64,000 nt of DNA from Artemia franciscana (taxonomy: Eukaryota > Arthropoda > Branchiopoda > Anostraca > Artemiidae): contig NC_088868.1 in the NCBI RefSeq assembly GCF_032884065.1, positions 1,548,001 through 1,612,000 of the forward strand, read 5' to 3'. Shown here piece after piece: positions 2,588 through 57,492 of the stretch; position 1 is the stretch's first letter, and each line of letters opens with the position of its first letter. The notes beneath the pieces were generated by a model. The model worked only from the letters and a program-made list of their open reading frames with translations. It had not been told where the DNA came from and did not search any database. The position numbers and the translations under genes were made by a program.

Positions 2588-3190
2588 TTAAAGATACATA
2601 TAATTGTTAAAGTTACTCCTTAGCCAATTACAACAATCAGCAATCAGACTGTTTTCACTGTCCTTGGTACTTAAACATTTCATATAGCTGTTAAAGTTAC
2701 TCCTTAGCCAATTACAACAATCAGCAATCAGACTGTTTTCACTGTCCTTGGTACTTAAACATTTCATATAGTTGTTAAAGTTACTCCTTAGCCAATTACA
2801 ACAATCAGCAATCAGACTGTTTTCACTGTCCTTGGTACTTAAACATTTCATATAGTTGTTAAAGTTACTCCTTAGCCAATTACAGCAATCAGCAATCAGA
2901 CTGTTTTCACTGTCCTTGGTACTTAAACATTTCATATAGTTGTTAAAGTTACTCCTTAGCCAATTACAATAATCAGCAATCAGACTGTTTTCACTGTCCT
3001 TGGTACTTAAACATTTCATATAGTTGTTAAAGTTACTCCTTAGCCAATTACAACAATCAGCAATCAGACTGTTTTCACTGTCCTTGGTACTTAAACATTT
3101 CATATAGTTGTTAAAGTTACTCCTTAGCCAATTACAACAATCAGCAATCAGACTGTTTTCACTGTCCTTGCTACTTAAACATTTCAGTGC
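2588..3190. repeat. 84-bp minisatellite, about seven copies
   Basis: A direct tandem array. Each unit contains GTTGTTAAAGTTACTCC, CAATCAGCAATCAGACTG and CTTGGTACTTAAACATTTCA, with a period of 84 bp. Copies differ at only a few positions (for example ACAACA, ACAGCA or ACAATA before the CAATCAG block), so the array is young or homogenised. Because 84 is divisible by three, the minus strand stays open for 171 codons with a 28-residue period (motifs MKCLSTKDSENS, NWLRSNFN). The frame is explained by the period, so I do not call a gene. Confidence 0.9.
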
Positions 3191-3439
3191 CTAATTCCCG
3201 AGAATAACAAATCTTGTTTCCGCAATTGCATATTTCTTCTGAGGGTTGTGTCAATAAGCGGAAATAAATTGAAAACACCTTTCTAATTTAAGTGGAAATG
3301 AAATACCGTCGTGTGAGAGAAAGATTGTTTAAAAGTTAGTTTTGTTGGACTTCATAGGCAATGCAATAGCGATGCCTAAGTAAAGAGCAATGTAGCCACA
3401 ATATGTTATTATTTTTTAGTAGTTAAAAGTGATTGGAAG

Positions 3440-5534: not shown

Positions 5535-6962
5535 ACATTTGTAAGTTATAAATACCTCTAATTTTTTTTCAGTTTTTTCTCTCCCTCCAGCCCCCCAGAT
5601 GGTCGAATCCGGGAAACGACTGTTGTCAAGTCAATTTGTGCAGGTCCCTGACACGCCTACCAATTTCCATCGTCCTAGCACGTCCGAAAGCACCGAACCC
5701 GCCAAAGCACTGGAAATCCCCCCAACTTCCCCAAAGAGAGCGGATCCGTTCCAATTATGTCAATCAAGTATCTTGAACTTGTGATTACTCTTCCCATCAA
5801 GTTTTGCCCCGATCTCTCCACTCTAAGCGTTTTCAAAGATTTCTGGTTTCCAAGATTTTTGTCCCCCCCCCCAACCTTCTATGTCCGTGGATCCGATTTG
5901 AATTAGAAATGGAACATCTGAGACATAAAATCCTTCTATATATTAAGTTTCAATAAAGTCCAATCACCCATTCGTAAGATAAAGATACCTCAATTTTCAC
6001 GTTTTCCAAGAATTCTATTCCCTCTCTAACTCCCCCCAATTTCACCGGATCAGGTTGGAATTTAAAATGAGAGCTCTAAAGCACAAGATTTTTCTAAATA
6101 TATAATTTCTGCAAGATCTAATCACCCTTTCGTAAGTTACAAATATCTCATTTTTTCTTATTTTTCCGAATTACCCCCCTCCCCCAAACTCCACCAAAGA
6201 GAGCGGATCTGGTCAGGCTGTGTCAGTCATGTATTTTGGACTTAAGCTTATTCTTCCAAGTTTCATCCTGATCTCTAAGCGTTTCCAAAGGTTCAACCCC
6301 CCCCCTCCGATGACATTGGATCCGGTCGGGATTTAAAATAAGAGATCTGAGTTACGAGGTCCTACTAACAATGAAATTTCATGAAGATCCGATCACTCCT
6401 TCGTAAGTTAAAAATACCTCATTTTTTCGAATTTTTCAGAATTAACCGTACCCTCTCCCCCCCCCCAGCTTTCCCCAAAGAGAGTGGATCCGTTCCGGTT
6501 ATCTAAATCACGTATCTAGGACTTATGCTTATTTTTCCCATCAAGTATCATCCCGATCCCTCCACTTTAAGCGTTTTCCAAGATTTTAGGTAGCCCCCCC
6601 CAACTCCGCCCAATGTCATTGGATCCGATCGAAATTTAAAACAAAAGCTCTGAAATCTGATATCATTCTAAGCATCAACTTTCATTAAGATCTGATAAAC
6701 CGTTGATAAGTTAAAAATACTTCATTTATTTTAATTTTTCCGAATTAACCGTCCCCCATCCCCCCCAGATGGCTGGATCGAGGAAGTGACTTTTTTTTTT
6801 AATTCAACCTGGTATTGTTTCTGATACACCTGCCAAATTTCATCGTCCTAGGTTATCTGGAAGTGCCTAAACTAGCAAAGCCGGGACAGAAAAACCGACA
6901 GACAGACCGACATAATTTGCGATCGCTATATGTCACTTGGTAAATACCAAGTGCCATATAAA
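5535..6962 (-). mobile_element. R2 repeat element, 3'-truncated copy
   Basis: Inverted copy of the R2 family defined at 28421-30880. Its 5' terminus lies at 6962 and includes the terminal hairpin CACTTGGTAAATACCAAGTG at 6935-6954. It is followed on the minus strand by the CGATCGCAAATTATGTCGG and CCTAGGACGATGAAATTTGG blocks. About 300-bp internal units (GGATCCGCTCTCTTTGG, TTTAAATCC, G-runs) run down to about 5535, where the copy breaks off. No transposase is encoded. Confidence 0.75.
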
Positions 6963-14351: not shown

Positions 14352-15179
14352 CTAGTCTGAGCACAACCTCTGATTTGCTCGCAGTCCGTCTATAACCGGC
14401 CGAAGTTTAAAAAGAGAGTCATAGCCGTCTTGACCTTTTGGAACAGCAAGATGGTTATCGTTTGCATGAAAAAATCTTCGAAGGGTTTTGAACCTGTCTC
14501 TGGGCATGACATCTGCAATGAGGGGAAACCTTGTAGCTCTATTCCAGTGTTGAGACATTGTGGGCTGTTTTATTAGGCCCATGAGCATGTGGATTCCCAG
14601 GAACTGTCCCATCTCTTTATTGGTGACTTTCAGTTGGACACCCTCCTTCTGCATCGCATACAAATTGAACTGAAAAACAAGGCGTTCGACCATGTCATCG
14701 TCGAACATCTGCTTGAAATATTCAATAGGGATTGGAATTTCCGGAGGAGGTGGAGGAAGAGAAGACTTCCAGGTTACATCGGGGGATTCAAAGTTTTGTT
14801 TTCTCCATCGAAATTCTCTGGAAGATGAAGATTGGAAAGGTGTTGCTGTACCAGAGGTAGATGGGTCACTAATGACAGAGGCAACCAAAGGGTATGGTGG
14901 TGGAGATGCACTTCGGTTGACGATGTGTACGTGAGTCAGTGACGATAAAGGTAAATCATCTTCATCAACGTTGTATTCAAGGGAGGGGTCGACAGGGGGG
15001 TTCCAGTCAGGATCGTTATCATCTTCCTCGTGGTCAAGGTCCTCATCGTCTTCTATTTCCAGATCAGACAGTTCTCCATCTGGTTCAAGAATATACTGAA
15101 CAGCTTCGTCCCGTGAAAAGATGTGGTTCGCATTTCGTGTAGTCTGGCTTCTGAATAATCTTTCCTCCCTCTTTGACAT
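14352..15179 (-). pseudogene. piggyBac transposase, N-terminal part
   Basis: PiggyBac transposases cut and paste DNA at TTAA sites through an RNase H-like DDE/D core. The likely start is the Met at 15179 (MSKREERLF), not the longer frame start at 15248, because a T-rich tract ending in AG sits just upstream as if an intron ended there. Residues about 10-120 are acidic and Pro/Ser-rich, usual for the family's N terminus. From about residue 150 come YFKQMFDDDMVERLV, GIHMLMGLIKQP and the RFFHAND block. The frame ends after GLRANQRL. The middle of the catalytic core, including the first catalytic Asp regions, is missing between here and the 13985-14350 piece. Dead or at best non-autonomous. Confidence 0.85.
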
Positions 15180-15248
15180 GATAGCACTAAAAATAAAAAA
15201 ATCATTAATTGTTGAAATTAATTTAAATTGTTGTTTGATATAATGCAT

Positions 15249-16470
15249 GTCAATAAAAAAGTAGGTGTAATATTTATCATTTTATTGAAATTTACAAATA
15301 TCAGGCCGGTCTCCATCAAATTTGACCAAATATTTGGATAAGTATGGTTTCTTGGACAAAAGAATTGTTTAGGTTTTCTTAGCTTTCTCTATATCAAACA
15401 CTATATCTTTATATCTTTCATCAGATTCAGCACACAGATAATAAAACAACAGAAAAGAATCCAACTTTTTTGCTTTTCTGCATCCAGACATTTTCCTTCA
15501 AGTCAAAAGTTTGATAACATTTAGTCTTCTTAGCTTTCAGTAACGTTTTGACTAAAATATCCCTTATCCTATAATTAGATTCAGGGCTAATCTATTTCAC
15601 TAAATTTTTTATGCTTTACCATTAAAAATTACCAGAATCATGAAAAATCACTTGTTTTTTGAAAAATAATCACTAAAAGTCACAAACTAGGTAGCACAAC
15701 TACAAAGCTACCACAACTAAAAATTCTAAGGTTACAAAGAAATAACAAAAACATGCGAACAAAATGATAGCCCCCGTAACACAAAACCGACTATTAAAAC
15801 GTTTGTTTTACCTTCATGGCCGGTTGATGCCTTATGGGATCAAGACAAATGAGTGGCCCTACCGGTAAACCAGAGACCCCCCACCTCAAATAATTAGTCT
15901 TATTTGATATTCTAATCATTCTTTATCTGCCCAATTTTTTCTTTAACTGTAACGCTCCAAACAAAGAAAATAAAAAATAAAATATTTCCCTTACCTTCAG
16001 TAGTTCCTTCAATTACAAAACAAAGAACTGAAATGACCCGGGTAAAGCCCAACAGATGTTTGTGCGTCTAAACGGGTATTTATTCGAAAGAACTCGATGT
16101 CCGCTATCTGATGGTATAATTTACGATTCAATTTCTTATAACTAGATGGCACTTATGCTGCAGCAAAGACTGTGATTCCAATTGTAATCACACGCCATGA
16201 AAGAAAGCCCTTCGATCAAAGTATAAGGAAAGAAGAAGAAATGACACGTTCAGACAAGCGTTATTCATTTAAGAACGGAAACATCTTGCCTGAGAAAGAA
16301 TGGGGCTGAATGTGAGAAGATTCAGGCGGAACTTAGACTCTCATGTGTAAGTTATCAACTGGCCATTATTAAGTTAGCCTAGTGTTTTAGATTAAAACGT
16401 TACTCAATTTGTTAGTAGCATGTGATTGGAGCCTAAAGAAATGTAGTCACCACCTTTTGACATGGAAAAA
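15249..16470. other. piggyBac 5' side, no further gene seen
   Basis: AT-rich. It may include the 5' untranslated part and terminus of the piggyBac relic, but I could not identify a TTAA-flanked terminal repeat. No open frame of interest. Confidence 0.4.
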
Positions 16471-21300: not shown

Positions 21301-24300
21301 TCTTCTTCTTTTCTCTTTCTCTCTGCTACTTATTGATATTCTGGCTTGTTAAAATTTTGTGCTCTTATTAACTCTTTTAAGGTGCGGTTACCCTGATTGT
21401 TTTGCTGTTCAATGATCCCTTTTCAATTGCAACACCTCTAGGAAAACCTCTTTCAACCTGTCTCGTATCAGTAACTTTGGCGAGACTCTTCATGGGAGGA
21501 ATCATGGAAATTGAGGTATGTTTATCTTACAAATTGGTAATCAGATCTTAATAAAACTTGATATGTAGAAAGATCTCATGTCTGAGATGCTCAGTTTTCA
21601 ATTTAGATTGAATTTCGGGGACATTGGGGAGTGGGGCTGGGGAAATGAAAATGTTGGGAAACGCTTAGATTGGAGAGATCAGGATGAAACTTTATTGGAA
21701 GAATAAGCACAAGTTCTAAATATGTGAATGACATAACCGGACTGGATCCGATCTCTTTGGGGGAGCTGGAGGGATTTCTAGTGCTTTAGCAAGTTTGGTG
21801 CTTCTAAACGTGTTGATGATTAAAACAGAACAGCAAAATCGTAAACTCTAGTACAGAGTCTAATTTTAGGTTCGGACCTCATCACAAGTGCCATATGAGC
21901 TCTTGGCTCTTGTTTGTTTAAGAAAAGTTTCAGCATTGACAATTAATTTGTTTGATTCTTGATTATGGCTTATGTTCCCTGTGCAAATTTTGACATGGAA
22001 ATTTCTGCTCTCCTACAGTTTCAATGCATCAAGAAAAGACAACAGTTTTGCCGTCATTTTATATCTAATACTCAGCCCTGTTCATTCACCAAATTATGTT
22101 TTTCATTTTAATGCTAATGTTTTTTTTTTTTTTAAATATGTCAAGTGCTCTTTTGTGAATATTTTGAAAAGTCTCAGTTTTCCTATTTTAGATCAATATT
22201 AGCTCTTATTTCATACTCTTGTACACTATCAGAAAATATTTATGAAATCTCATTATACTATGATTCTATATCAACCTATCACTGCTCTGTGGTGAATTGG
22301 AACGATTTTGATGTTCTAACCTTTGGGAAGACCTATTGTTGCAGCTATCTTTATATTTGAAGTAAGGATTAATTAATTAGTCGTTTTCCCAATTTGACCA
22401 TCTGGGGGGGGGGGCAGTGGGGGGCCGGTTAATTCGGAAAAAATAGAAAAAATGAAGTAATTTTATCTTATGAATGGGTGGATGAAATTTGATATTTAGA
22501 AGGATCTTGTGCTTTAAAATTCTCATTTTAAATTCCGACCAGATCCTGTGACGTTGGGGGGAGTTGGAGGGGGAAACCGGAATTCTTGGAAAACGTGAAA
22601 ATTGGGGTATTTTTATCTTACGAATAGATGATCGGATCTTAATGAAATTTGATTTTTAGAAAGAATTCATGTCTCAGAGCTCTTATTTCAAATCCCGACC
22701 AGATGGTTTGACATTGGGTGGAGTTGGAGGGGGAAATCTTGGAAAAACACTTGGAGTGTAGGAATCGGGATGAAGCTTGGTGGATAGAATAAACAAATGT
22801 CCTTGATGCGTGATTGACAGAATCGTACTGGATTCGCTTTCTTTGGGGGAGTTGGGGGGAGGGGTTCAGTGATTTGGCGAGTTTGGTGCTTCTGGACGTG
22901 CTAGGACGATGAAGATTGATAGGCGTGTCAGGAAGCTGCACAATTTGACTTGATAAAGTCGTTTCCCCAGATTCGACCATCTGGGGGGCTAAAAGGGGAG
23001 GAAAAAATTAGGTATTTATAACTTACGAGTGGGTGATCGGATCTTAATGAATTTTGATATTTAGAAGGACATCGTGACTCAGAACTCTTATTTTAAATCC
23101 TGACCGGCATTAAGCCTCTTATTTTCCTTTTTAAATCAATCTATTGATTCATAGAATTTTGTTAGAGCTCATACCATATGATCTCTTGGCTCTTAGCTCT
23201 TCTCGCCTCGTCACAAGTGCCATATGAGCTCTTAGCTCTTGTTTCTTTGTCACTAAGAATATATCTGTTATTAATACATATATCGTATTTCCTATCATCA
23301 ATAGGTTTATTAGAACCATTCAGTAGGCTGATATAATGGTGGACTTTTGCTAAGGCTGTTTGGGAGTCAATCTGGGAGCGAAACCTATCCCATGCTATCT
23401 TTTTTTACTTTCTGCATATTCTTTTGAGCTTTGCTATTGCATGTTTATACTCATGATGTGTGGTAGGTGAGGGATGTTTCTGGAAATGCTTTCTGGCTTT
23501 TTTTTCTTGTTTTTTTGTTGTTGCTAATTCAGTCATCATCCCACCATGTCTTAGGCAGCCTCTTAAGATTTAGCTTTTTCTTATTACGTTATTTTGGAAT
23601 GGCTGCATCAGCAGCAGCAACCAACCATGATGATAATTTCTCAACTTTTTTAGCTATATTTAGAAGGTTATATACCTCTGAGTAATCAAAAGATACAAGT
23701 ATATCTTGGAAAAGTGACCAGTTTGCTTTTTTGGTATTATACTTTGGCTTGGGATTTGTGGACATAACTTGTGCGTTACTTAATGAAGTAAGAATGGTTC
23801 TATGATCTGTTTACAGTTCAGGGACCTTTGAAATTTTAATCATTGCATAAAGATATGTGGGACCAATCTGGAGATCAATTGTAGACGAACTATTATTACG
23901 AGAATCAAATCTGGTCTAAAAGTTATAAGGAGTAAAAAAAGAGAGATTAGTATCATTTATCAGAAGTCGTTCTATACTTTTTCCAGCCTTATTTTCATAG
24001 GTAGTTAATTCCCATAATGGACTCTGAGCATTAAAATCACCAAGTATAAGAGTTTTTCCTCCAACTGTTTCTTTCCCAAGAATATTAAGAATATTCACCT
24101 CGTGTTTTATAAAAGGATTTGATATTGATATGCTTACCAGTATTTAAGTTTACAGATACTCCAATCACATCTATTTCAAAATCGTTGCAAACTGTAGGCA
24201 AAGGGAAATGGATAATATTATTATCTATAAAAATTGCTTCAGCACCGAATTTCCTATTTGTACCCTTGTCTTTACGATAGCACTTATAACCAGCCAGGGT

Positions 24301-28420: not shown

Positions 28421-30880
28421 TGGCACTTGGTATTAACCAAGTGACATATAGCAATCGCCAATTCTGTCGGTCTCGGTTTTGCTACTTTAGGCACTTCCAG
28501 GTAAGCTAGGACGATGAAATTTGGCAGGCGTATCAGGGACCGGACCAGATTAAATTAGAAACAGTATTTTTCCCGATTTGACCATCTGGGGGGGGGGAGT
28601 GGGGGTCGATTAATTCGGAAAAATAGAAAAAATGAAGTATTTTCAACTTATGAGCGGGTGATTGGATCTTAATGAAATTTGATGTTTGGAATGATATTGT
28701 GTCTCAGAGCTCTTATTTTAAATCCCGACCGGATCTGATGACATTGGGGGGAGTTGGATGGGGGGAAACCTAAAGTCCCGGTTTTGCTACTTTAGGTACT
28801 TCCAGGTAAGCTAGGACCATGAAATTTGGCGAGAGTATCTGGGACCGGACCAAATTAAATTAGAAATAGTTGTTTTCCTGATTTGACCATATGGGGGGGG
28901 GGGTTTCCGGTTAATTCGGAAAAAATAGAAAAAATGAAGTATTTTTAACTTATGAGCGGGTGATTGGATCTTGATGTTTTGAATGATATTGTGTATCAGA
29001 GCTCTATTTTTAAATCCCGACCGGATCTGATGACATTGGGGGGAGTTGGAGGGGGGAAACCTAAAATCTTGGAAAACACTTAGAGTGGAGGGATCGGAAT
29101 GAAACTTAATGGGAAAAATAAACACAAGTCCCAGATACATGATTGACATAATCGGAACGGATCCGCTCTCTTTGGGGTAGTTGGGAGGGGGGGGGGGTAA
29201 TTCTGAAAAATTAGAAAAAATGAGGTATTTTTAACTTACGAACGGGTGATCGGATCTCAATGAAATTTGATGTTTATAAGGATACCGTGTCTTAGAGCTC
29301 TCATTTTAAATCCCGACCGGATCTGGTGACGGGGGGGGGTTAGGAGGGGGAAACCTAAAACTTGGAAAACACTTGGAGTGGAGGGATCGGGATGAAATAT
29401 GGTGGGAAAAATAAACACAAGTCCTAGATAGATGATTGACATAAACGGAACGGGTCCGCTCTCTTTGGGTTAGTTGGGGGGGGGGTTATTTCTGAAAAAT
29501 TGGAAAAAATTAGGTATTTTTAACTCACGAACGGGTGATCGGAGATCAATGAAATTTCATATTTAGAAGGATATCGTGGCTCAGAGCTCTTATTTAAAAC
29601 CCGACCGGATCTGGTGACATTGGGGGGGGGGGTTGGGAGGGTGAAACCTAAAACTTGGAAAACACTTAGAGTGGAGGGATCGGGGTGAAACTTGGTGGGA
29701 AAAATAATCAAGAGTCCTAGATACAGGATTGACATAACCAGAGTGGATCCGCTCTCTTTGGGGTAGTTGGGGGAGGGGGTAATTCTGAAAAATAAGAAAA
29801 AATGACGTATTTTTAACTTACGAAGGAGTGATCGGATCTTCATGAAACTTCATATTTAGAAGGACCTCGTAACTTAGATCTCTTATTTTAAATCTCAACC
29901 GGATCAAGCGTAATTGCGGGGGGGTAGTTGGGGGGGACCGGAAATCTTAGAAAATACTTAAAGCGGTGAGATCAGGATGAAACTGGATGGGAAGAATAGA
30001 AACCTGTCTAAGATACGTGACTGACATAACTGGACCGGATCTACTCTCTTTGGTGGAATTGGGGGGGGGGGGGTAATTTTGAAAATTGAGGTATTTGTAA
30101 CTTACGAAAGGGTGACCAGATCTTAATGAAATTTGATATTTAGAAGGATCTTGTGCTTTAAAGTTCTAATATCAAATTCTGACCTGATCCTGTGACATTC
30201 GGGAGAGTTGGAGGGGGAAACCGGAATTTTTGGAAATTGGGGTATTTTTATCTTACGAATAGATGATCGGATCTTAATGAAATTTGATTTTTAGAAGGAA
30301 TTCATGTCTCAGAGCTCTTATTTCAAATCCCGACCAGATCTTTTGACATTGGGGGGAGTTGGAGGGGGAAATCTTGGAAAAACACTTGGAGTGGAGGAAT
30401 CGGGATGAAGCTTGGTGGATAGAATAAACAAATGTCCTTGATACGTGATTGACAGAATCGTACTGGATTCGCTCTCTTTGGGGGAGGGGTTCAGTGATTT
30501 GGCGAGTTTGGTGCTTCTGGACGTGCTAGGACGATGAAAATTGGTAGGCGTGTCAGGGAGCTGCACAATTTGACTTGATAAAGTCGTTTTCCCAGATTCG
30601 ACCATCTGGGGGGCTAAAGGGAGAGTAAAAATTAGAAAAAGTTAGGTATTTATAACTTACGAGTGGGTGATCGGATCTTAATAAATTTTTATATTTAGAA
30701 GGACTTCGTGACTCAGAGCTCTTATTTTAAATCTTGACCGGCATTAAGCCTCTTATTTTCCTTTTTAAATCAATCTATTGATTCATAGAATTTTGTTAGA
30801 GCTCATACCATATGATCTCTTGGCTCTTAGCTCTTCTCGCCTCGTCACAAGTGCCATATGAGCTCTTAGCTCTTGTTTCT
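28421..30880 (+). mobile_element. R2 repeat element, near-complete copy
   Basis: Best example of the R2 family. The 5' end is TATGGCACTTGG, with an 8-bp-stem hairpin CACTTGGT-ATTA-ACCAAGTG at 28424-28443. Then comes a module with GCTAGGACGATGAAATTTGG and TTTGACCATCTGG plus a G-run. Six internal units of 281-301 bp follow, with GGGTGATCGGATC-type markers near 28657, 28958, 29245, 29534, 29828 and 30111. The 3' end is CAAGTGCCATATGAGCTC and TTAGCTCTTG. TATGGCACTTG at the start and CAAGTGCCATA near the end form an inverted pair. There is no coding capacity. The layout (sub-terminal inverted repeats, hairpin, central tandem units) resembles non-autonomous Helentron derivatives, but that is inference. 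Confidence 0.8.
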
Positions 30881-31363: not shown

Positions 31364-33440
31364 CTAAATCAGAAATAAACATTGGAGTTTTCCGAAGAGA
31401 TTTTGGAAGATTGCCGTGAAGCTGATGAAAGACAAAAGAAGCACAAGAAATAATGTAAATAGGCTGTAGACTTCAGACCGGTGTTGGTGAGGAACGGTTG
31501 TTTTCCATAACCAGACGGTGTGCTTTATTATACATGACAGAAAGTCACCGCAGCGTAGACGGAAAAGTAGATATCCATACAATGGGGCAGTAAGAAACAT
31601 ATGACTGGACAAGACAAGAAAAAAGAAGTTTCAGAATAGATCCAGGAAATGTGTGTAAGTTTTTGAATGATACCTAAACTCTGTGACACCTTAACCTTAA
31701 TCACGGCTATATGGCTTCTGAATGCAAGATTCTCATCAGGTAGGATACCAAGAAACCGGACCACCCGATTCTCTGGTCTACACAAGGAGCCTTGTGACAC
31801 CTGAAGTTGTATAAAATGAGGGAAAGCTATACCAATTTGAGAAAATATAAGAAAATCTGACTTACCAACATTCAAGACCAAGTAATTTGCAATAAACCAT
31901 GAAGTAACTCTCTCGAATAATGCGACAAGATTAGACTTTATATCACATTCCGTCTTCCCAAGGGTCCTAAGAGTGGTATCATCAGCAAAAGCAACAAGAA
32001 AATCTTTGTTAGGAATAATACTGGAACACGAAGCAGCATCCGGATGACACAGCTTGCAGCATTCCAGAGGCCTGGTGTTTTTCACCGCCGAAATCAGATC
32101 ATTAACATAAATCAGAAATAAAATGGGTCCAAGAACAGATCCCTGAGGGATGCCAAAATATACTTCAAAAGGGCTCCGGTAAATCGGATAAATTGAAATA
32201 ATTCTACCAGAAAGATATGAATCAAACCAAGGCAAAGCGTTTGATCTTCCAATACGCGGTAGTTTACAAAAAAGAATGCGATGAGTCACGGAATCAAAAG
32301 CTTTACGAACATCTAAAAATAAAGCTGCCGGGATAGGACCAGAATCTATTGCCGAATGAATGAAATTCGAGAAAGCTACGCAAGCATGCTCTGAAGAGTG
32401 ACTCGCTTGGAATCCAAACTGGAAATCATGCAAAAATTCTTTTGCATCCAGAAAACTAAGAAGCCTGGACAGCATAGCCTTCTCAAAAATTTTGCTGAAA
32501 ACAGATAGGAGAGAAATTGGTCTATAATTAGCAGGATCACTCCAAGAACCACCTTTATAAAGCACTATAACCTTAGCTCGCTTGAGAGATTCAGGTAAAA
32601 TTTCATCCTCGAAAGAGAGATTGACAAGCTTAGTCAATGGTGGCATGATAGCAGGCAGAATGGCACGGATAACCCTTGTAGGAATTTTGTCTGATCTTGA
32701 AGAGGATGATCCTTTAAGAGCATTCACCATACGAGCTACCTCAAATTCAGAAAAAAATTCAAGACCATCGACTTTAAACATGATGGTCCAAGATAGGCTC
32801 TGAAATCGCAACGAAAAGTTGTAGAGCTTGCAGAGGAAGCAGTTGCCTTCCCTATATTAGTAAAATAAGAGGTAAGCTTTAGTTGAACATTTGTATCTCC
32901 TTGGATGGTTTTACCATCGAGTATCAGCATTGATGGAACTGAAGGCAGAGGAGGAGTAGGTCTAAGAACTGAATTAATTAAATGCCATGTCTTCCTAACA
33001 TCCTTCCCACATTCAGAAAATTTCCTATGATAATACTGAGACTTTGCCTTCCGACACAGAGAATTAAATATACTCCTATTGGCCTTGAATCGTTCAAACT
33101 ACAGATGATGAAGCCTTGTAAAGTTTCCAAAAATTATTTTTCCTTTTCCAGCTTTTATGGAGACCTCAAGTCATTTTTGGATTCAGTGGTGCTATCCTTT
33201 TCGGAGTATGGGGCGCTGGACCCTGATTGCAAATTTCCAGGATTCCTTCTTCTACTAAATCATAAAAGGAATCAAAAGAGCGGTTAAAATCTGAATAAGA
33301 AACCAAACTATCCCATGGTAAATCAGCCAGATGAGAATTAAGTAGACTTAGGTCAGTATCACCATAAGGGAAAAATTGGAGAATAGATGGTGATGCTATA
33401 CACTGCGCTTGATCAGCACTCTTATATCGGGAAATAGTGG
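31364..33440 (-). pseudogene. CR1-like reverse transcriptase
   Basis: The longest piece, 32811-31528, holds the palm and fingers: VIVLYKGGSWSDPANYRPIS, FGFQASHSSEHA, FLDVRKAFDSV (first catalytic Asp), GIPQGSVLGPILF and LVAFADDTTL (catalytic FADD), then the thumb (NRVVRFLGILPDENL). The active-site residues are intact. The upstream connector is in other frames at 33486-33166 (PWDSLVSYSDFN) and 32930-32736 (LTSYFTNIGKA). Downstream of about 31630 the frame shifts and the tail degrades. Reverse transcriptase copies element RNA at the nicked target; this copy cannot make a full protein. Confidence 0.85.
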
Positions 33441-51710: not shown

Positions 51711-53114
51711 TTATGGCACCTGGTATCTACCAAGTCCGATTTACGGTTAAATCGGAAAAATAAGAAAAACTGAGGTATGTTTAACTTACAAACTGGTGAT
51801 TGGATATTAATGAAATTTGATTTTTGGAAGGATATCGTGTCTCAGAGCTTTTGCTTTAATTCTCGACCGGATCCAGTAACATTGGGGGGAGACCTAAAAT
51901 CTTGGAAAACGCTTAGAGTGGAGGGATTAGGATGAAACTTGGTGGGAGAAATAAGCACAAGTCCTAGTTATGTGATTGCCATAACTAGAGCTGATTCGTT
52001 CTCTTTGGAGGAGTTGTGGGGAGGGTTAATTCTGAAAAATTAGAAAAAATGAGGTATTTTTAACTTTCGAAGGAGTGATTGCATCTTAATGAAATTTCAT
52101 ATTTATAGGGACCTCGTAACTCAGATCTCTTATTTTAAATTCCGACTGGGCCCAGTGTCATAGGGGGGGTGGTCTTGGAAAACGCTTAAAGCAGAGAGAT
52201 CAGGATGAAAATTGGTGGGAAGAATAAGCAGAAGTCCTAGATACGTGATTGACACAACCAGACTGAATCCATTCTCTTTGGGGGAGTTAGAGGTGGTGTT
52301 ATTTCGGAAAAATTGAGGTATTTTTAACTTACGAATCAGATCTCAATGATGTTTAGAAGGATATCGTATCTCCGAACTTTTATTTTAAATCCCAACCGGA
52401 TCCGGCGACATTGGGGGAGTTGGAGAAGGGAATCTAAAATCTAGGAAAACGCTTAAAGTGAAGGGATCGGGATGAAACTTGGTGGTAAAAATAAGTACAA
52501 GTCCTATATACGGGATTGACATAACTGGAACGGATTCGCTCTCTTTGGGGACTTGGGAGATGGTTAATTCTGAAAAATTCGAAAAATTATTTATTTTTAG
52601 CTTACGAAAGAGTGATCAGATTTTAGTGAAAATTCATATTTAGAAGGACCTTGCAGCTCAGATCTCTCATTTTAAATCCTTACCGAATCCAGGGTCATTG
52701 GGGGGGGGGGGTGGAAATCTCGGAAAACGCTTAGAGTGGATAGATCAGGATGAAACTTGGTGGGAAGAACATGCACAAGTCCTAGATATGTGATTGACAT
52801 AAGCGGACCGAATCTGCTCTCTTTGGATGTGTTAATTCAGAGAAATAGAGGTATTCTTAACTTATGAATGGGTGACCATTCTTGAGGTATTTTTAAATTT
52901 GATATTTAGAAGGAACTCATGTCTCAAAGCTCTTATTTTAAATCCCGACCAATTTTGATGACATTGGGCGGGGGGATTTGGAGGGGGAAACCGCAAATCT
53001 TGGAAAACGCTTAGAGTGGAGAGATCGGGATGAAACTTGGTGGGTAGAATAAGCAAATGTCATAGGTGCGTGATTGACGTAACCGGAATGGATCCACTCT
53101 CTTTGGGGGAGTTA
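51711..53114 (+). mobile_element. R2 repeat, left part of an interrupted copy
   Basis: Starts TATGGCACCTGGTATCTACC (degraded terminal hairpin) and contains about four 300-bp units with GGATCTTAATG-like, TTTTAAATCCC and CTCTCTTTGGGG markers. It breaks at GGGGGAGTTA (53114). It resumes at 57102, so the two parts are one element split by the 53115-57101 insertion. Confidence 0.8.
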
Positions 53115-53365
53115 TAGTGAGGAAAAATACGGTTTGACCTCGGGGAAATTGCAACAGAATTTTTTTTACACCAAAATGTTCAGAAAAATCAACTTAATCA
53201 CACAAAAAAAAATCCTCCCGAATCCCCCTTGCACAACTACCCGAAACCCTCCTTGAAGGGGGGGTAAATAGAAATTTCTATTTGGACGTATATTTGGGTT
53301 TAAGTGGTCGTTTTCTATCAAATCAAGCATGACCAATCCGAATCTGACGTCAGAAATCAAGTGCT
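53115..53365. repeat. Left terminal inverted repeat
   Basis: Pairs with 56840-57101. The outer 80 bp match well and the inner part is diverged but keeps TTTTCTATCAAATCAAG. A T-run and A-run of variable length account for most length differences. Confidence 0.75.
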
Positions 53366-53757
53366 TCGTACCCCAGTATAAACTTTCACCTTCACGGAAC
53401 AGGGGAGGGGAAGGGGTAAAGTATGCAGGTCATTATTTGCCAGATTCCTATCGTTAAAGAATCATTTTATATCAAATAAAGTACCGTATTGCCAGATATG
53501 AGGTCAAAAAGCAGTTTTTTTTTTTTTTTTTTACTATTTACCTTATTTTCACCTCTAAGCGGCCTGTAATATGAGGGGTTGCTAAGTATAACATCTTGAA
53601 AAACCACTTCTTCAATCGAGATCAAAACTTCAGATCAATCAGTTATAAAAAAAAGAACGTTCAGAACTCAGGTAAATTAATCACAAGAACATTTTGATTT
53701 TAAAGCACAACCTAAAGCTAATTCTTCTTCCTACTCGTCTTCGTTATCATCCTCATC

Positions 53758-56439
53758 CTAATTTGCTGCAGCGTTAGCATATAACGCCCCTTTGCACTCC
53801 CCGCAGGTAAAGCTGCTGGGCAAACCGTTCCGACGGCAGCCGCATCTGAGCGACTCGCGCCCACTGGTGCACTGGCACCGCACCATCTTCAGCAGGTTTT
53901 CCGATGCTGGTGAAGCATCCGTCATTATGGGAAGATACATATTCCGTGACGAAGAGAGGTGCCAACCCCACTCTTTGGGCTTTAGCGAATCGGCCGTATC
54001 TTGCCACTTCATTATTTGCAAATAGCACCTGTAAAAGTGGTACTTTGCGACAGCCAAAGTAGGCGGAAGCCCCTCTGCCTGAATGAAAGCAATTGCACTT
54101 GCAACCCGCATTGTAAATGATCGCACCCGAAGATCCTTCAGGGTCTTCTCATTGCTTTTTCCTGTGTAGATGCGGAGCAAAGATTTCTCTCCAGCTTCTG
54201 CAGTCTCCTGGTGGTTGGATCCTGTTGTCATGAAGGTCTTAAAAGCATCTTTAAAAATCCCATCTTTAAGTGACAAGGAAACATCTGCTGGTTTCCCTAC
54301 GCCGTGAAGTCTAAATGTTGTATCGCAGCCAGACATTGCGTGGCAAACGAGTCTATTTTCTGCTGCTTCGGTTCCTAGTTTGTTCTTGATCCTTTTTATG
54401 TCGTACACTCGTCAGTTATTTCCATATGTGTCTGTCTGCATAAAGATATCACATGCATTAAGCTTGGTATGGTACAGTAAAAGGACTAATAGGTCGGCAT
54501 CATTCCCAATCAAAGTGGTCGACGCAGTTTCAGTGCGACTGACTGCAGTTAATACAACTAAGACATCGCCATAATCCTGAGCGTGTAGAATGTTGCATCC
54601 TGAGTTCACCAGCCTCTCAGCAAGTAGGCTGATGAAGCGTTTGTTTTTGTGGTTTCTCAGAAATTCTTCCTTACTTTTGACAATCTTCATGTTAGGAGAG
54701 AATTGAATCGTTGGACACGACAAGCCTTTGGTTCTCTTCAGTTGTGTGCAGTTTTTCATCGTATGTGTATCAGTGTAAGAGTCAAAACTACCAATGCCTG
54801 GCCGAAATGTCTTGCGAAATAATCTACGTAAGATCCTGCCACCTCAGAGTATGTGGATCCTGGAGTCCACGGGATTTTCTGGACTAGCCAGCCACCGTCC
54901 AAGACTCTCTGGGAGGTTGGCAATGTCACTGGACCATAGAGCCCCTCAATTTTTATCTGTGCATTAGTTAGAGAGGCATTGTCGGTTGTCCTCATCACCT
55001 CGAACGAACTAAAGAGCGATGGTGGAAAGCTACAGAGCTCGAACGACAGAACCTCGTCAAGTCAGAACCACTGGTGCTAGCCACTGCGGCAAGACGTTGG
55101 AAGATTAGAGCTGGGTTGACCATTGCCATTTCGCTATCTTTCACCACGATAACTATGGCTGAGCTGTAACTGTGCAGTGTGTTAATTAAAAATCAAGATT
55201 ATAAATGGTGATGCAGCTGCGAAGCCAGTCCCATTTGTACAGGAGACATTGAACCGCGTGGTCTGCATGCCTGCATTATAGCCTGTCTTATAGAAGATAT
55301 TAGACCAGGCGTGTCGACCCCCTATTGATGAAAGCAGTAGACAAAGAGATGGACACACGAAGTTCAAACACTACTCTACTGACGATATCTCGTTAAGAAA
55401 TTCGTAGGAATCCTTCCTTGTCGTGATGGATTTGATTTCACTTCTTATTATCTTTCCAACGACTTTTATGAGCTGATCCCTTTCTCTTTTTTCACATTCT
55501 ACTTTTTCCTCTTGGTGAAATTCTTGTAATATCCTGTCAACTGTGTCTCTAAATGTTACGAGTGTCTCTTTCCCATTTGAATCGGACACAACCACTTGTT
55601 CGCCATACTTACTGACTAGCAAATCCTTGGCTTGACGAAAGCTGTAGGCCAAACTATCACAGTCAGTTTCGGAGAGAATATGAGCCATCTTTCTTAAAAT
55701 GATCATCAGAGGTACAGGTTCTTCACTGTTGGCATAGCACCAAAGCGCTTCTTCGAGAGTGGCTTTCCTTGCACTATCGCACGGTCTTCTCTTCTGTTTC
55801 TTTGGTGGAGGCACGTCACTCACTTCTTCTTGGCCACGGAATTTTTTGGAATCTCTTTTCCTGTCCTGAAGTTCACTGAGCATGTTTGATAATAAACGGC
55901 ATCCTCTGCATGAAGGTCAGAAGTCTTTGAATTTTTCCGACCAAGCACTGTCATGGCCCACTGATCGTTCCTGCTCTTACACATTTCACTAATAGAGTAG
56001 TCGAAGCTATGAGTTCGTACTGCATAAGCTTCAGAGAACTCACGACTTGTGATCTTGCATAATTTCAGTGCTTGACCACAGAATAGGCAGTTCTTCGAAA
56101 AATCAAAGCGTGGAGCTGAAGATCTGGTTGGGGGGCTGTAACCGGTTCTATCTGCTCAAGTTTCCTTTGAGCGTTCTTGTCTCTGTCGATCCAACGTCTG
56201 TCAGAGAAGTTACGACGACACGCGGTATGGACTTCATTTCCAATTGTCACAGCTATGCTACTGCCTCTTTCTTTGCTTGCGTTATTCACGGCATCGGATA
56301 ATATGCCAGTGTTTTCACCGGGTTTGATGCTGCTTGGGGATATCGGGCTCGCGGATCCCAGTTTATTATTTTGTCTTTTCTTTTTGGAAGTAAATAAAAC
56401 GGCACAAACCTTGTATTTAGCCTTGAACACGCCAATCAT
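53758..56439 (-). pseudogene. PIN/FEN-like nuclease-family protein with Cys-rich tail, broken
   Basis: The element's only gene, in disrupted frames. From the N terminus: NNASKERGSSIAV and VHTACRRNF (56439-56065); FDFSKNCLFCG and AVYYQTCSVNFRTGKEIP in another frame (56130-55850); KATLEEALWCYANSEEPV and YGEQVVVSDSNGKETLVTFR (55883-55371); VNPALIFQRLAAVA and DEVLSFELCSFPPSLF (55110-55000); GGWLVQKIPW (54998-54756); then IGNDADLLVLLLYH and, after an in-frame TGA at 54409-54411, CHAMSGCDTT and LHGVGKP. The C terminus has WQDTADSLKPKEWGW and the cluster CQC, CGC, CGEC. This order matches a many-copy uncharacterised invertebrate family I know from sequence. D-AD-LV and GCDTT--L-GVG resemble the PIN/FEN catalytic and helix-hairpin motifs; nuclease activity is inference. 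At least four frame shifts and two stops (TAG at 55371, TGA at 54409). Confidence 0.75.
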
Positions 56440-56839
56440 CTAGTAAGTACTATGGTAGATGGCTCCACTGACTAGATCACCCAAAGAATGACACTAAGGA
56501 ATGGAAACCGCAAACTGGAGGGGGAGTCTGGAATGCTGGTTTGAAATTAGACTGTTCGAGACTCATATTCTAAGGCGCCATTCCTAGCTTGATAGGAAAT
56601 GGCGAATCAACTGACAAATGATTAAAATTACTAGTTCATGTAGGTCAACTTCCACAGCCGACTTGGGTAATATGAGGTACTTGACCACGTGAAATCAAGT
56701 TTTTAACTTCATTTTCGAATTCACCGCCATTGATTCCAAAGGAAACGACCGAATAATGCAACAACCCTTTAATTTCGAGATTTGCCCCCCCCCCTGCCCC
56801 TTAAGGATAGAAATGGGCATTAGGATGCGGGAAAAAGGA

Positions 56840-57101
56840 AAATCTGAATTCAGATTTGGAGTCAGCATACTTGATTTGATAGGAAACGACTATTTAAACT
56901 CAAAAATATTTATAAACACAAAGGTCAGGTTTTCCCCTCATTTTTCCCCTTCAAGGGCAAATTCGGGATACTTGAGCATTCGGGGGGATTTTCTTTGTGT
57001 GATTAAACTGATTTTTCTGAACATTTTGGTGTAAAAAAAAAAAAAATCTGTTGCAATTTTCCCGAGGTTTGGCCATTTTTTTCCGTATCTTTCCTCCACT
57101 A
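56840..57101. repeat. Right terminal inverted repeat
   Basis: Complement of the left repeat, containing CTTGATTTGATAGGAAACG, CTGAACATTTTGGTGTAAAA, TCTGTTGCAATTTTCCCGAGG and the terminal CTCCACTA. Confidence 0.75.
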
Positions 57102-57492
57102 TTAGGGGGGTCCAGTGCTTTAGCGAGTTTGGTCCTTCTGGACGTGCTAGGACGATGAAAATCGGTAGGTGTGTCAGGGACCTACACAAATTGACTTGAT
57201 AAAGTCGTTTTCTCCCACTCGACCATTTGGGAGGGGGGCTGAAGGGAGATGAAAAATTAGAAAAAATGAGGTTTTTTAACTTACGAGTGGGTGATCGGAT
57301 CTTAATGAATTTTGATATTTAGAAGGAGCTCGTGTCTCAAAGCTCTTATTTTAAATTCCACCAGAATTAGCCTCTGATTTTCCTTTTAAATTATTTATAT
57401 TGATTCTTAGAATTTCGCTCGAGCTCATGCCATATGAGCTCTTGGCTCTTCCGACCTCGTCACAAGTGCCATATGAGCTCTTAGCTCTTGTT
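57102..57492 (+). mobile_element. R2 repeat, right part of the interrupted copy
   Basis: Resumes with TTAGGGGGGTCCAGTGCTTT, then GCGAGTTTGGTCCTTCTGG, GACCATTTGGGAGG and GGATCTTAATGAATTTTG, and ends with the family terminus CAAGTGCCATATGAGCTC at 57464-57492. Confidence 0.8.

What the first reader, a model, noticed from the sequence alone, without database searches (positions are those of the whole stretch)
53115..57101. Mobile inverted-repeat element built around a PIN/FEN-like, Cys-rich gene family
Seen: 250-bp complementary ends (TAGTG...CACTA), TTA on both sides, and an R2 repeat that rejoins cleanly (GGGGGAG-TTA-GGGGGG) when the element is removed. That is close to proof of insertion. The sole gene belongs to a family I know as many scattered 'uncharacterised' copies in invertebrates, with a GNDADLLVLL motif, a GCDTT--L-GVG motif and a CQC/CGC/CGEC tail. 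Inference: the family is the transposition protein, or passenger, of an unnamed DNA transposon superfamily.
Basis: partly seen in the sequence, partly recalled or inferred. Interest (0 to 1): 0.85.

Follow-up and report, generated by a model that had tools for sequence, protein, structure and literature searches.

The report
Deleted Academ-like DNA transposon copy
This stretch is a decayed copy of a cut-and-paste jumping gene that has lost the core of its own transposase; complete relatives in the same genome suggest it belongs to a known group, Academ, rather than to a new one.

Summary
The insertion is real. The element spans 53115-57101, with imperfect ~250-bp inverted ends (TAGTG...CACTA), a TTA duplication, and paralogous empty sites elsewhere in the window. 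In three families of this genome it sits between TAGT...ACTA ends with 3-bp duplications: 15 of 16 elements of the window's family, 6 of 6 of a second and 1 of 1 of a third.

A complete relative (5,440 bp, one uninterrupted 1,463-aa ORF) shows a single large protein: an N-terminal Cys-rich region, a putative DDE core (D448, D612, E852), an XPG/FEN-type nuclease and a Cys tail. The window copy has lost residues ~411-996, the whole putative DDE core, and its start codon. The nuclease assignment is supported: a profile of that domain finds 17 PDB sequences at E<=10, all GEN1, EXO1 or FEN1.

Nuclease, 3-bp duplications and 5.4-6.0 kb length fit AcademX of the named Academ superfamily (PMC10045372, PMC10294476 passages). 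Direct comparison with Academ reference proteins was not possible. Most likely a new member of a known kind, not an unnamed superfamily.

The parts
53112..53114 (.). Target-site duplication TTA, left
   Evidence: Direct reading; equals 57102-57104
53115..53364 (+). Left terminal inverted repeat (gene 3' side), begins TAGTG
   Evidence: Inverted repeats I1-I3; 40 scored matches in own genome
53758..53886 (-). Cys-rich tail (CQC...CGC...CGEC) of the broken gene, C-terminal end
   Evidence: ORF; aligned with relatives and with P0003
54310..54801 (-). XPG/FEN-like nuclease domain remnant (FDSY ... GNDADLL ... GCDTT ... GVG); one TGA at 54412-54414 inside
   Evidence: ORFs; tblastn of P0003; domain profile search
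53758..55138 (-). Gene remnant, C-terminal part: matches P0003 residues 997-1447
   Evidence: tblastn of P0001 and P0003 to the window
55135..55171 (.). Deletion joint: P0003 residues about 411-996 (the putative DDE core) are missing here
   Evidence: Joint between element positions 2034 and 2057 in BLAST to L068; P0003 coverage
55166..56346 (-). Gene remnant, N-terminal part: matches P0003 residues 28-410
56346..56347 (.). Second deletion joint: 251-275 bp missing compared with relatives, with the start codon and the first Cys of the N-terminal Cys-rich region; the second Cys codon reads Ser here
   Evidence: Break at element position 3232/3233 in 7 relatives (L055, L064, L065, L067, L069, L070, L071) and their ORFs; window frame read
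56843..57101 (-). Right terminal inverted repeat (gene 5' side), ends CACTA
57102..57104 (.). Target-site duplication TTA, right

Best explanation
A non-autonomous, decayed copy of a cut-and-paste DNA transposon of the Academ superfamily, AcademX-like lineage. Shown here: TAGT...ACTA inverted ends; 3-bp duplication; insertion into an older repeat; one gene whose intact relative encodes 1,463 aa with an N-terminal Cys-rich region, a conserved middle domain, an XPG/FEN-type nuclease and a Cys tail; loss of the middle domain and start codon in this copy. Inferred: the middle domain is the DDE transposase (triad D448-D612-E852 of P0003) that cuts at the TAGT ends and joins them to target sites staggered by 3 bp. 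The XPG/FEN domain, in the same protein, probably trims or opens flap or hairpin intermediates at the ends. The window copy cannot make a working enzyme: it either moved in trans or decayed after insertion. The insertion and its flanks also exist in duplicate on C11.
For: TIR, TSD and empty sites. 3-mers match at both ends in 15 of 16 elements of the family (14 of 15 without the C11 duplicate of the window insertion); cross-pairing of ends gives 22 of 240; 4-mers 0 of 16. Second family 6 of 6. Third family: a complete 5,440-bp element with TAC on both sides and an uninterrupted 1,463-aa ORF. TIR and gene are linked: 28 of 30 gene loci. Window protein pieces lie beside the end in 7 of the 8 best TIR loci; the eighth, L003, holds the middle part, with the N-terminal part in adjoining L055. 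XPG/FEN: 17 of 17 PDB matches at E<=10 are GEN1, EXO1 or FEN1, best E 0.032; hhalign to a host ORF that looks like GEN1: E 6.5e-5, probability 64, over 74 columns. D448, D612 and E852 are conserved by family majority. AcademX encodes a nuclease and makes 3-4 bp TSDs (PMC10045372, passages). Academ is counted among DDD/E superfamilies (PMC9587614, passages). Curated bivalve Academ elements average 5,565 bp (PMC10294476, passages); full-length copies here are 5.4-6.0 kb.
Against: No reference Academ sequence was at hand, so membership rests on architecture. The middle domain has no PDB match and only a weak, sub-threshold Pfam match (PF20231 DUF6589, E 1.7e-4, in 1 of 6 rows), with none for the intact P0003; PF20231 searched genome-wide gives 3 weak matches, none over its cut-off. 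The XPG domain is remote: P0003 has no Pfam match, the only single-protein XPG match is XPG_I_2 at E 0.12, and none of the 13 genome-wide XPG_I matches lies at an element place in my lists. That Academ's nuclease is of XPG type is recalled, not read; the AcademH paper is not held. In one search single decayed rows depart from the triad (L064 has E at D612, L068 has K at E852). Two gene loci (L019, L021) lack a detectable end, and one element (C17) has unequal 3-mers. AlphaFold without an alignment gave unusable models (pLDDT 34.5 and 36.4).
Confidence: 0.85

Rival explanations
1. An unnamed superfamily: the middle domain is not an Academ DDE domain and the element is a separate lineage that also has an XPG/FEN nuclease.
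For: No solid family or PDB match for the middle domain.
Against: TSD length, nuclease and element length all fit AcademX; a conserved D-D-E pattern is present.
Confidence: 0.1
2. The XPG/FEN nuclease itself is the transposase (a DDE-independent mechanism) and the middle domain only binds DNA.
For: The XPG-like acidic motifs are conserved in three families. Deletion derivatives without the nuclease (L064, L067, L069, L070, L071, L003/L055) sit at sites with 3-bp duplications, but movement in trans says nothing either way.
Against: The middle domain has its own conserved acidic residues. XPG/FEN enzymes cut flaps and are not known to join ends (general knowledge).
Confidence: 0.04
3. EnSpm/CACTA or PIF/Harbinger element carrying a passenger gene.
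For: 3-bp TSD; TTA at the window copy; the right end reads CACTA.
Against: The element's own 5' end reads TAGTG, so CACTA is in the opposite orientation at both ends. TSDs include CTC, GTT, AAC, TGA, TGT and TAC, not only TWA. The complete element read holds one large ORF with no Pfam transposase match.
Confidence: 0.01

Closest known systems
Academ superfamily, AcademX lineage
   Same: Nuclease-encoding, 3-4 bp TSD (PMC10045372 passages); mean length 5,565 bp in bivalves (PMC10294476 passages); a DDD/E superfamily (PMC9587614 passages); XPG nuclease (recalled)
   Different: No direct sequence comparison was possible; TAGT...ACTA ends and the Cys tail could not be checked against references
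AcademH
   Same: Same superfamily
   Different: AcademH has a helicase and 9-10 bp TSD; no Pfam match of any kind in P0003, TSD 3 bp
FEN1/EXO1/GEN1 (XPG/Rad2 nucleases)
   Same: Acidic motifs in order: VVFDG, DAD, DDTD, GCD..GIGK
   Different: Here a domain of a large transposon protein, 36-44% identical between its own families and only remotely similar to the cellular enzymes

Membership tests
Academ (AcademX) | Target-site duplication of 3-4 bp | tested here: met
   15 of 16 and 6 of 6 and 1 of 1, all of 3 bp
Academ (AcademX) | Encodes a nuclease (XPG type, recalled) | tested here: met
   17 of 17 PDB matches at E<=10 are XPG/FEN family, best E 0.032; hhalign E 6.5e-5 to a GEN1-like host ORF. 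Against: no significant single-protein Pfam match. Catalysis not tested
Academ (AcademX) | DDE/D transposase domain of Academ type | tested here: inconclusive
   D448, D612, E852 conserved by family majority; no PDB match; PF20231 weak in 1 of 6 rows; no Academ reference available
Academ (AcademX) | TIRs, element of about 5-6 kb | tested here: met
   Full-length copies 5.4-6.0 kb with TIRs
Academ (AcademX) | Clusters with Academ in a transposase phylogeny | not testable with these tools
   No Academ proteins held
AcademH | Helicase and 9-10 bp TSD | tested here: not met
   No Pfam family in P0003; TSD 3 bp
EnSpm/CACTA | 5' terminus CACTA/CACTG (recalled) | tested here: not met
   5' terminus is TAGT in the three families
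PIF/Harbinger | TWA target (recalled) | tested here: not met
   TSDs include CTC, GTT, AAC, TGA, TGT, TAC
Kolobok / piggyBac | TTAA duplication | tested here: not met
   0 of 16 four-base matches

The most novel reading that the evidence does not exclude
An unnamed DNA-transposon superfamily in which an RNase H-like core and an XPG/FEN flap nuclease are fused in one protein, the nuclease processing hairpin or flap intermediates; the head-to-head palindromic derivatives would be by-products of that processing.
Probability: 0.1. Interest if true: 0.6.

Novelty: new member of a known kind. Interest (0 to 1): 0.3.

Why it matters
It explains how a PIN/FEN-like Cys-rich gene can be seen without a transposase: deletion derivatives lose the DDE-like core and keep the nuclease. 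It also points to a genome with many near-identical relatives (83 of 93 listed matches at 90% or more, 56 of 93 free of stops over the part searched) in which the role of an XPG/FEN domain in transposition could be tested directly.

Tried and rejected
Relatives outside this genome: P0001, A2, A3 and A4 in viral contigs, A2 in genome contigs and P0001 in phages found none. PDB by sequence: P0001 and A2 none; A7 (putative DDE region) none; only A6 (nuclease domain of three families) found matches. Single-protein Pfam XPG_I_2 was weak (E 0.12). hhalign of A6 to an asteroid-like host ORF gave nothing (probability 0.5); A7 to the same ORF, a negative control, 0.2. Pfam XPG_I searched genome-wide gave 13 matches; the two I fetched look like GEN1 and an asteroid-like gene. 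Two AlphaFold jobs without an alignment were unusable, so no fold search was run. Considered and rejected: CACTA, Harbinger, Kolobok and piggyBac (terminus or TSD not met). Literature: no paper in the held library has all of 'Academ', 'XPG' and 'transposase' as whole words; the one paper holding PF20231 or DUF6589 is unrelated; of 22 papers listed for Academ terms only PMC10045372 has 'AcademX'. These cover only the open-licence library. Passages of PMC10799480, PMC12730594 and PMC8594854 were looked at and not used.

Full report
Observation. The element at 53115-57101 is as described. It starts TAGTG and ends CACTA, with TTA at 53112-53114 and 57102-57104. Its ends are complementary in three stretches of 47, 59 and 95 nt at 83, 90 and 73%. 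The two flanks joined with one TTA align across the junction to empty repeat units in the window at 5576-5851, 22734-22988 and 30369-30624, and in L056 and L026, at 81-86% identity. The insertion is therefore real. A second locus, C11:9179102-9182831, has the same TTA and flanks mostly 97-98% identical to the window's, so it looks like a duplicate of the same insertion and not an independent one.

Copies in the genome. The genome (G000, 1.27 Gb) gave 40 scored matches of 371 candidates for the left 250 bp, and 152 matches for the C-terminal 217 aa, from 1,341 candidates of which 150 were scored; both are lower bounds. Of the 30 gene loci fetched (L009-L038; L009 is the window's own copy and some others are duplicates of each other), 28 have a match to the left end on the expected side, some of them only in part; L019 and L021 do not. 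Of the 8 best TIR loci, 7 match the window's protein pieces within the 1.5 kb fetched; the eighth, L003, holds the middle part of the gene, with the N-terminal part in adjoining L055.

Target-site duplications. In one search, 29 left (gene 3' side) ends were examined, boundaries being placed with up to five edits. Both ends could be read in 16 elements, the window copy among them; in the other 13 the second end was not found, was truncated or was not fetched. The flanking 3-mers agree in 15 of these 16; C17:631799-637444 does not. Without the C11 duplicate this is 14 of 15. Pairing ends of different elements gives 22 agreements of 240, and 4-mers agree in 0 of 16. The duplicated triplets are TTA, TAC, CTC, ATT, ATA, GTT, AAC, TGA, TGT and TAA, so the target is 3 bp but not a fixed word.

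Two further families. A second family (41-44% identical in the C-terminal part) has ends TAGTCCAGGACTTTTAG...CTAAAAGTCCTGGACTA and 3-bp duplications in 6 of 6 fetched copies (L039-L044). These copies are 97.7-99.5% identical over their longest shared stretches, so they spread recently. They are 3.2-4.3 kb long, and none covers P0003 before residue 629, so all six look internally deleted. A third family is represented by L090:439-5878, a complete 5,440-bp element with TAGT ends, TAC on both sides and one uninterrupted ORF of 1,463 aa (P0003). A search with its middle part returned 93 matches (1,504 candidates, 92 scored): 83 are at least 90% identical and 56 have no stop in the matched stretch (counted from its list).

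What the protein is. P0003 has, in order: an N-terminal Cys-rich region (CPLC at 8, FFC at 100-102); a middle domain; an XPG/FEN-like domain (VVFDGY 1114, DAD 1187, DDTD 1210, GCDTT 1269, GIGKGK 1278); and a Cys tail (1416-1446). The motif names are recalled. A profile of the XPG/FEN-like region from three families (A6) was run against 177,635 distinct PDB sequences. It found 17 at E<=10, and all 17 are GEN1, EXO1 or FEN1. The best E-value is 0.032, so each is weak alone, but the two alignments printed are in register over the acidic motifs they cover. hhalign of A6 to a host ORF that looks like GEN1 gave E 6.5e-5 and probability 64 over 74 columns. The comparisons with an asteroid-like ORF gave 0.5 (A6, a miss for my reading) and 0.2 (A7, a negative control). 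Pfam does not recognise the domain in P0003, gives XPG_I_2 only at E 0.12 in the second family, and its XPG_I model searched genome-wide hits none of the element places in my lists.

The middle domain. By family majority, D448 (DN-DHD), D612 (FDQPL) and E852 (DLVIEQ) are conserved, with further His and Asp residues. The second family's fetched copies lack the D448 and D612 region, so its row there is not evidence; those two residues rest on the window's family, the third family, and L093 and L094, which are close to each other. Single decayed rows depart (L064 has E at D612, L068 has K at E852). The D...D...E order is what one expects of a DDE transposase with an insertion, but this is inference. 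One row (P0002) matches Pfam DUF6589 at E 1.7e-4, below the curated cut-off. The other five rows of A7 do not match, P0003 does not, PDB gives nothing, and the family searched genome-wide gives three weak matches.

What happened to the window copy. P0003 matches the window element over residues 28-410 and 997-1447. The missing 411-996 is the whole middle domain, with D448, D612 and E852. The joint lies at about 55135-55171. A second deletion of 251-275 bp at 56346/56347, seen against 7 relatives, removed the start codon and the first Cys of the N-terminal region, and the next Cys codon reads Ser. Full-length copies of the window's family are 5.6-6.0 kb against 3,987 bp here.

Comparison with known superfamilies. 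PMC10045372 (passages read) states that AcademH makes 9-10 bp and AcademX 3-4 bp duplications and relates this to the helicase and nuclease they encode. PMC9587614 (passages) lists Academ among superfamilies with a DDD/E transposase. A survey of bivalves, PMC10294476 (passages), lists 100 curated Academ elements with a mean length of 5,565 bp. A nuclease, 3-bp duplication and 5.4-6.0 kb length therefore fit AcademX. That Academ carries an XPG nuclease I recall from Repbase reports; I did not read it here, and the AcademH paper is not held. CACTA, Harbinger, Kolobok and piggyBac fail on terminus or duplication.

Mechanism. Shown: mobility in the past, the ends, the 3-bp duplication, and the protein architecture. 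Inferred: the middle domain cuts and joins, and the XPG/FEN domain processes flaps or hairpins. Seven head-to-head palindromes of the second family appear in the list as inverted match pairs 178-189 bp apart. Two of them (L043, L044) were read in full, are 98.4% alike and lie at different targets (TAA, TTA), so the palindrome itself moves. Its asymmetric centre suggests snap-back repair; this is a guess.

Verdict. It is most likely a decayed AcademX-like copy.

Noticed in passing
L043 (2808-6010), L044 (2862-6040); pairs in the list on C1, C3, C4 (two), C7, C13, C15: Head-to-head palindromic derivatives of the second family: two copies of the 3' part facing each other around a loop of roughly 180 bp, at different target sites in the two read in full, so the palindrome is mobile.
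   Followed up: partly
L064, L065, L067, L069, L070, L071, L003 with L055: A deletion subfamily of 3.6-3.8 kb that joins element positions about 645 and 2057 (with middle-domain sequence between) and so lacks the E852 region, nuclease and Cys tail; in L064 and L069 the joint keeps an open frame into the acidic C-terminus, possibly a truncated protein.
   Followed up: partly
C13:3763974-3793824 (L016, L017, L018, L028): Four copies with the same 12-base flank, spaced about 9.4-9.6 kb: probably a local duplication of one insertion.
   Followed up: no
window 14355-15281 (-): ORF of 309 aa that looks like a piggyBac-type transposase N-terminus (by eye; no family scan).
   Followed up: no
window 31531-32856 (-): ORF of 442 aa with non-LTR reverse-transcriptase-like motifs (by eye; no family scan).
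   Followed up: no
window 2591-3190 (-): 200-aa ORF made of a repeated unit (KCLSTKDSENSLIADCCNWLRSNFNNYM).
   Followed up: no
window 51745-52802: Tandem array of about 273-bp units beside the element, part of the repeat into which it inserted; related units lie near 5.6, 6.5, 21.6, 22.7 and 29-30.7 kb.
   Followed up: partly
L092 365-1297 (-); other XPG_I matches on C17, C34, C19: Possible small asteroid-like XPG gene family of the host; one member read (by eye), others seen only as matches with open frames of about 290-320 aa.
   Followed up: partly
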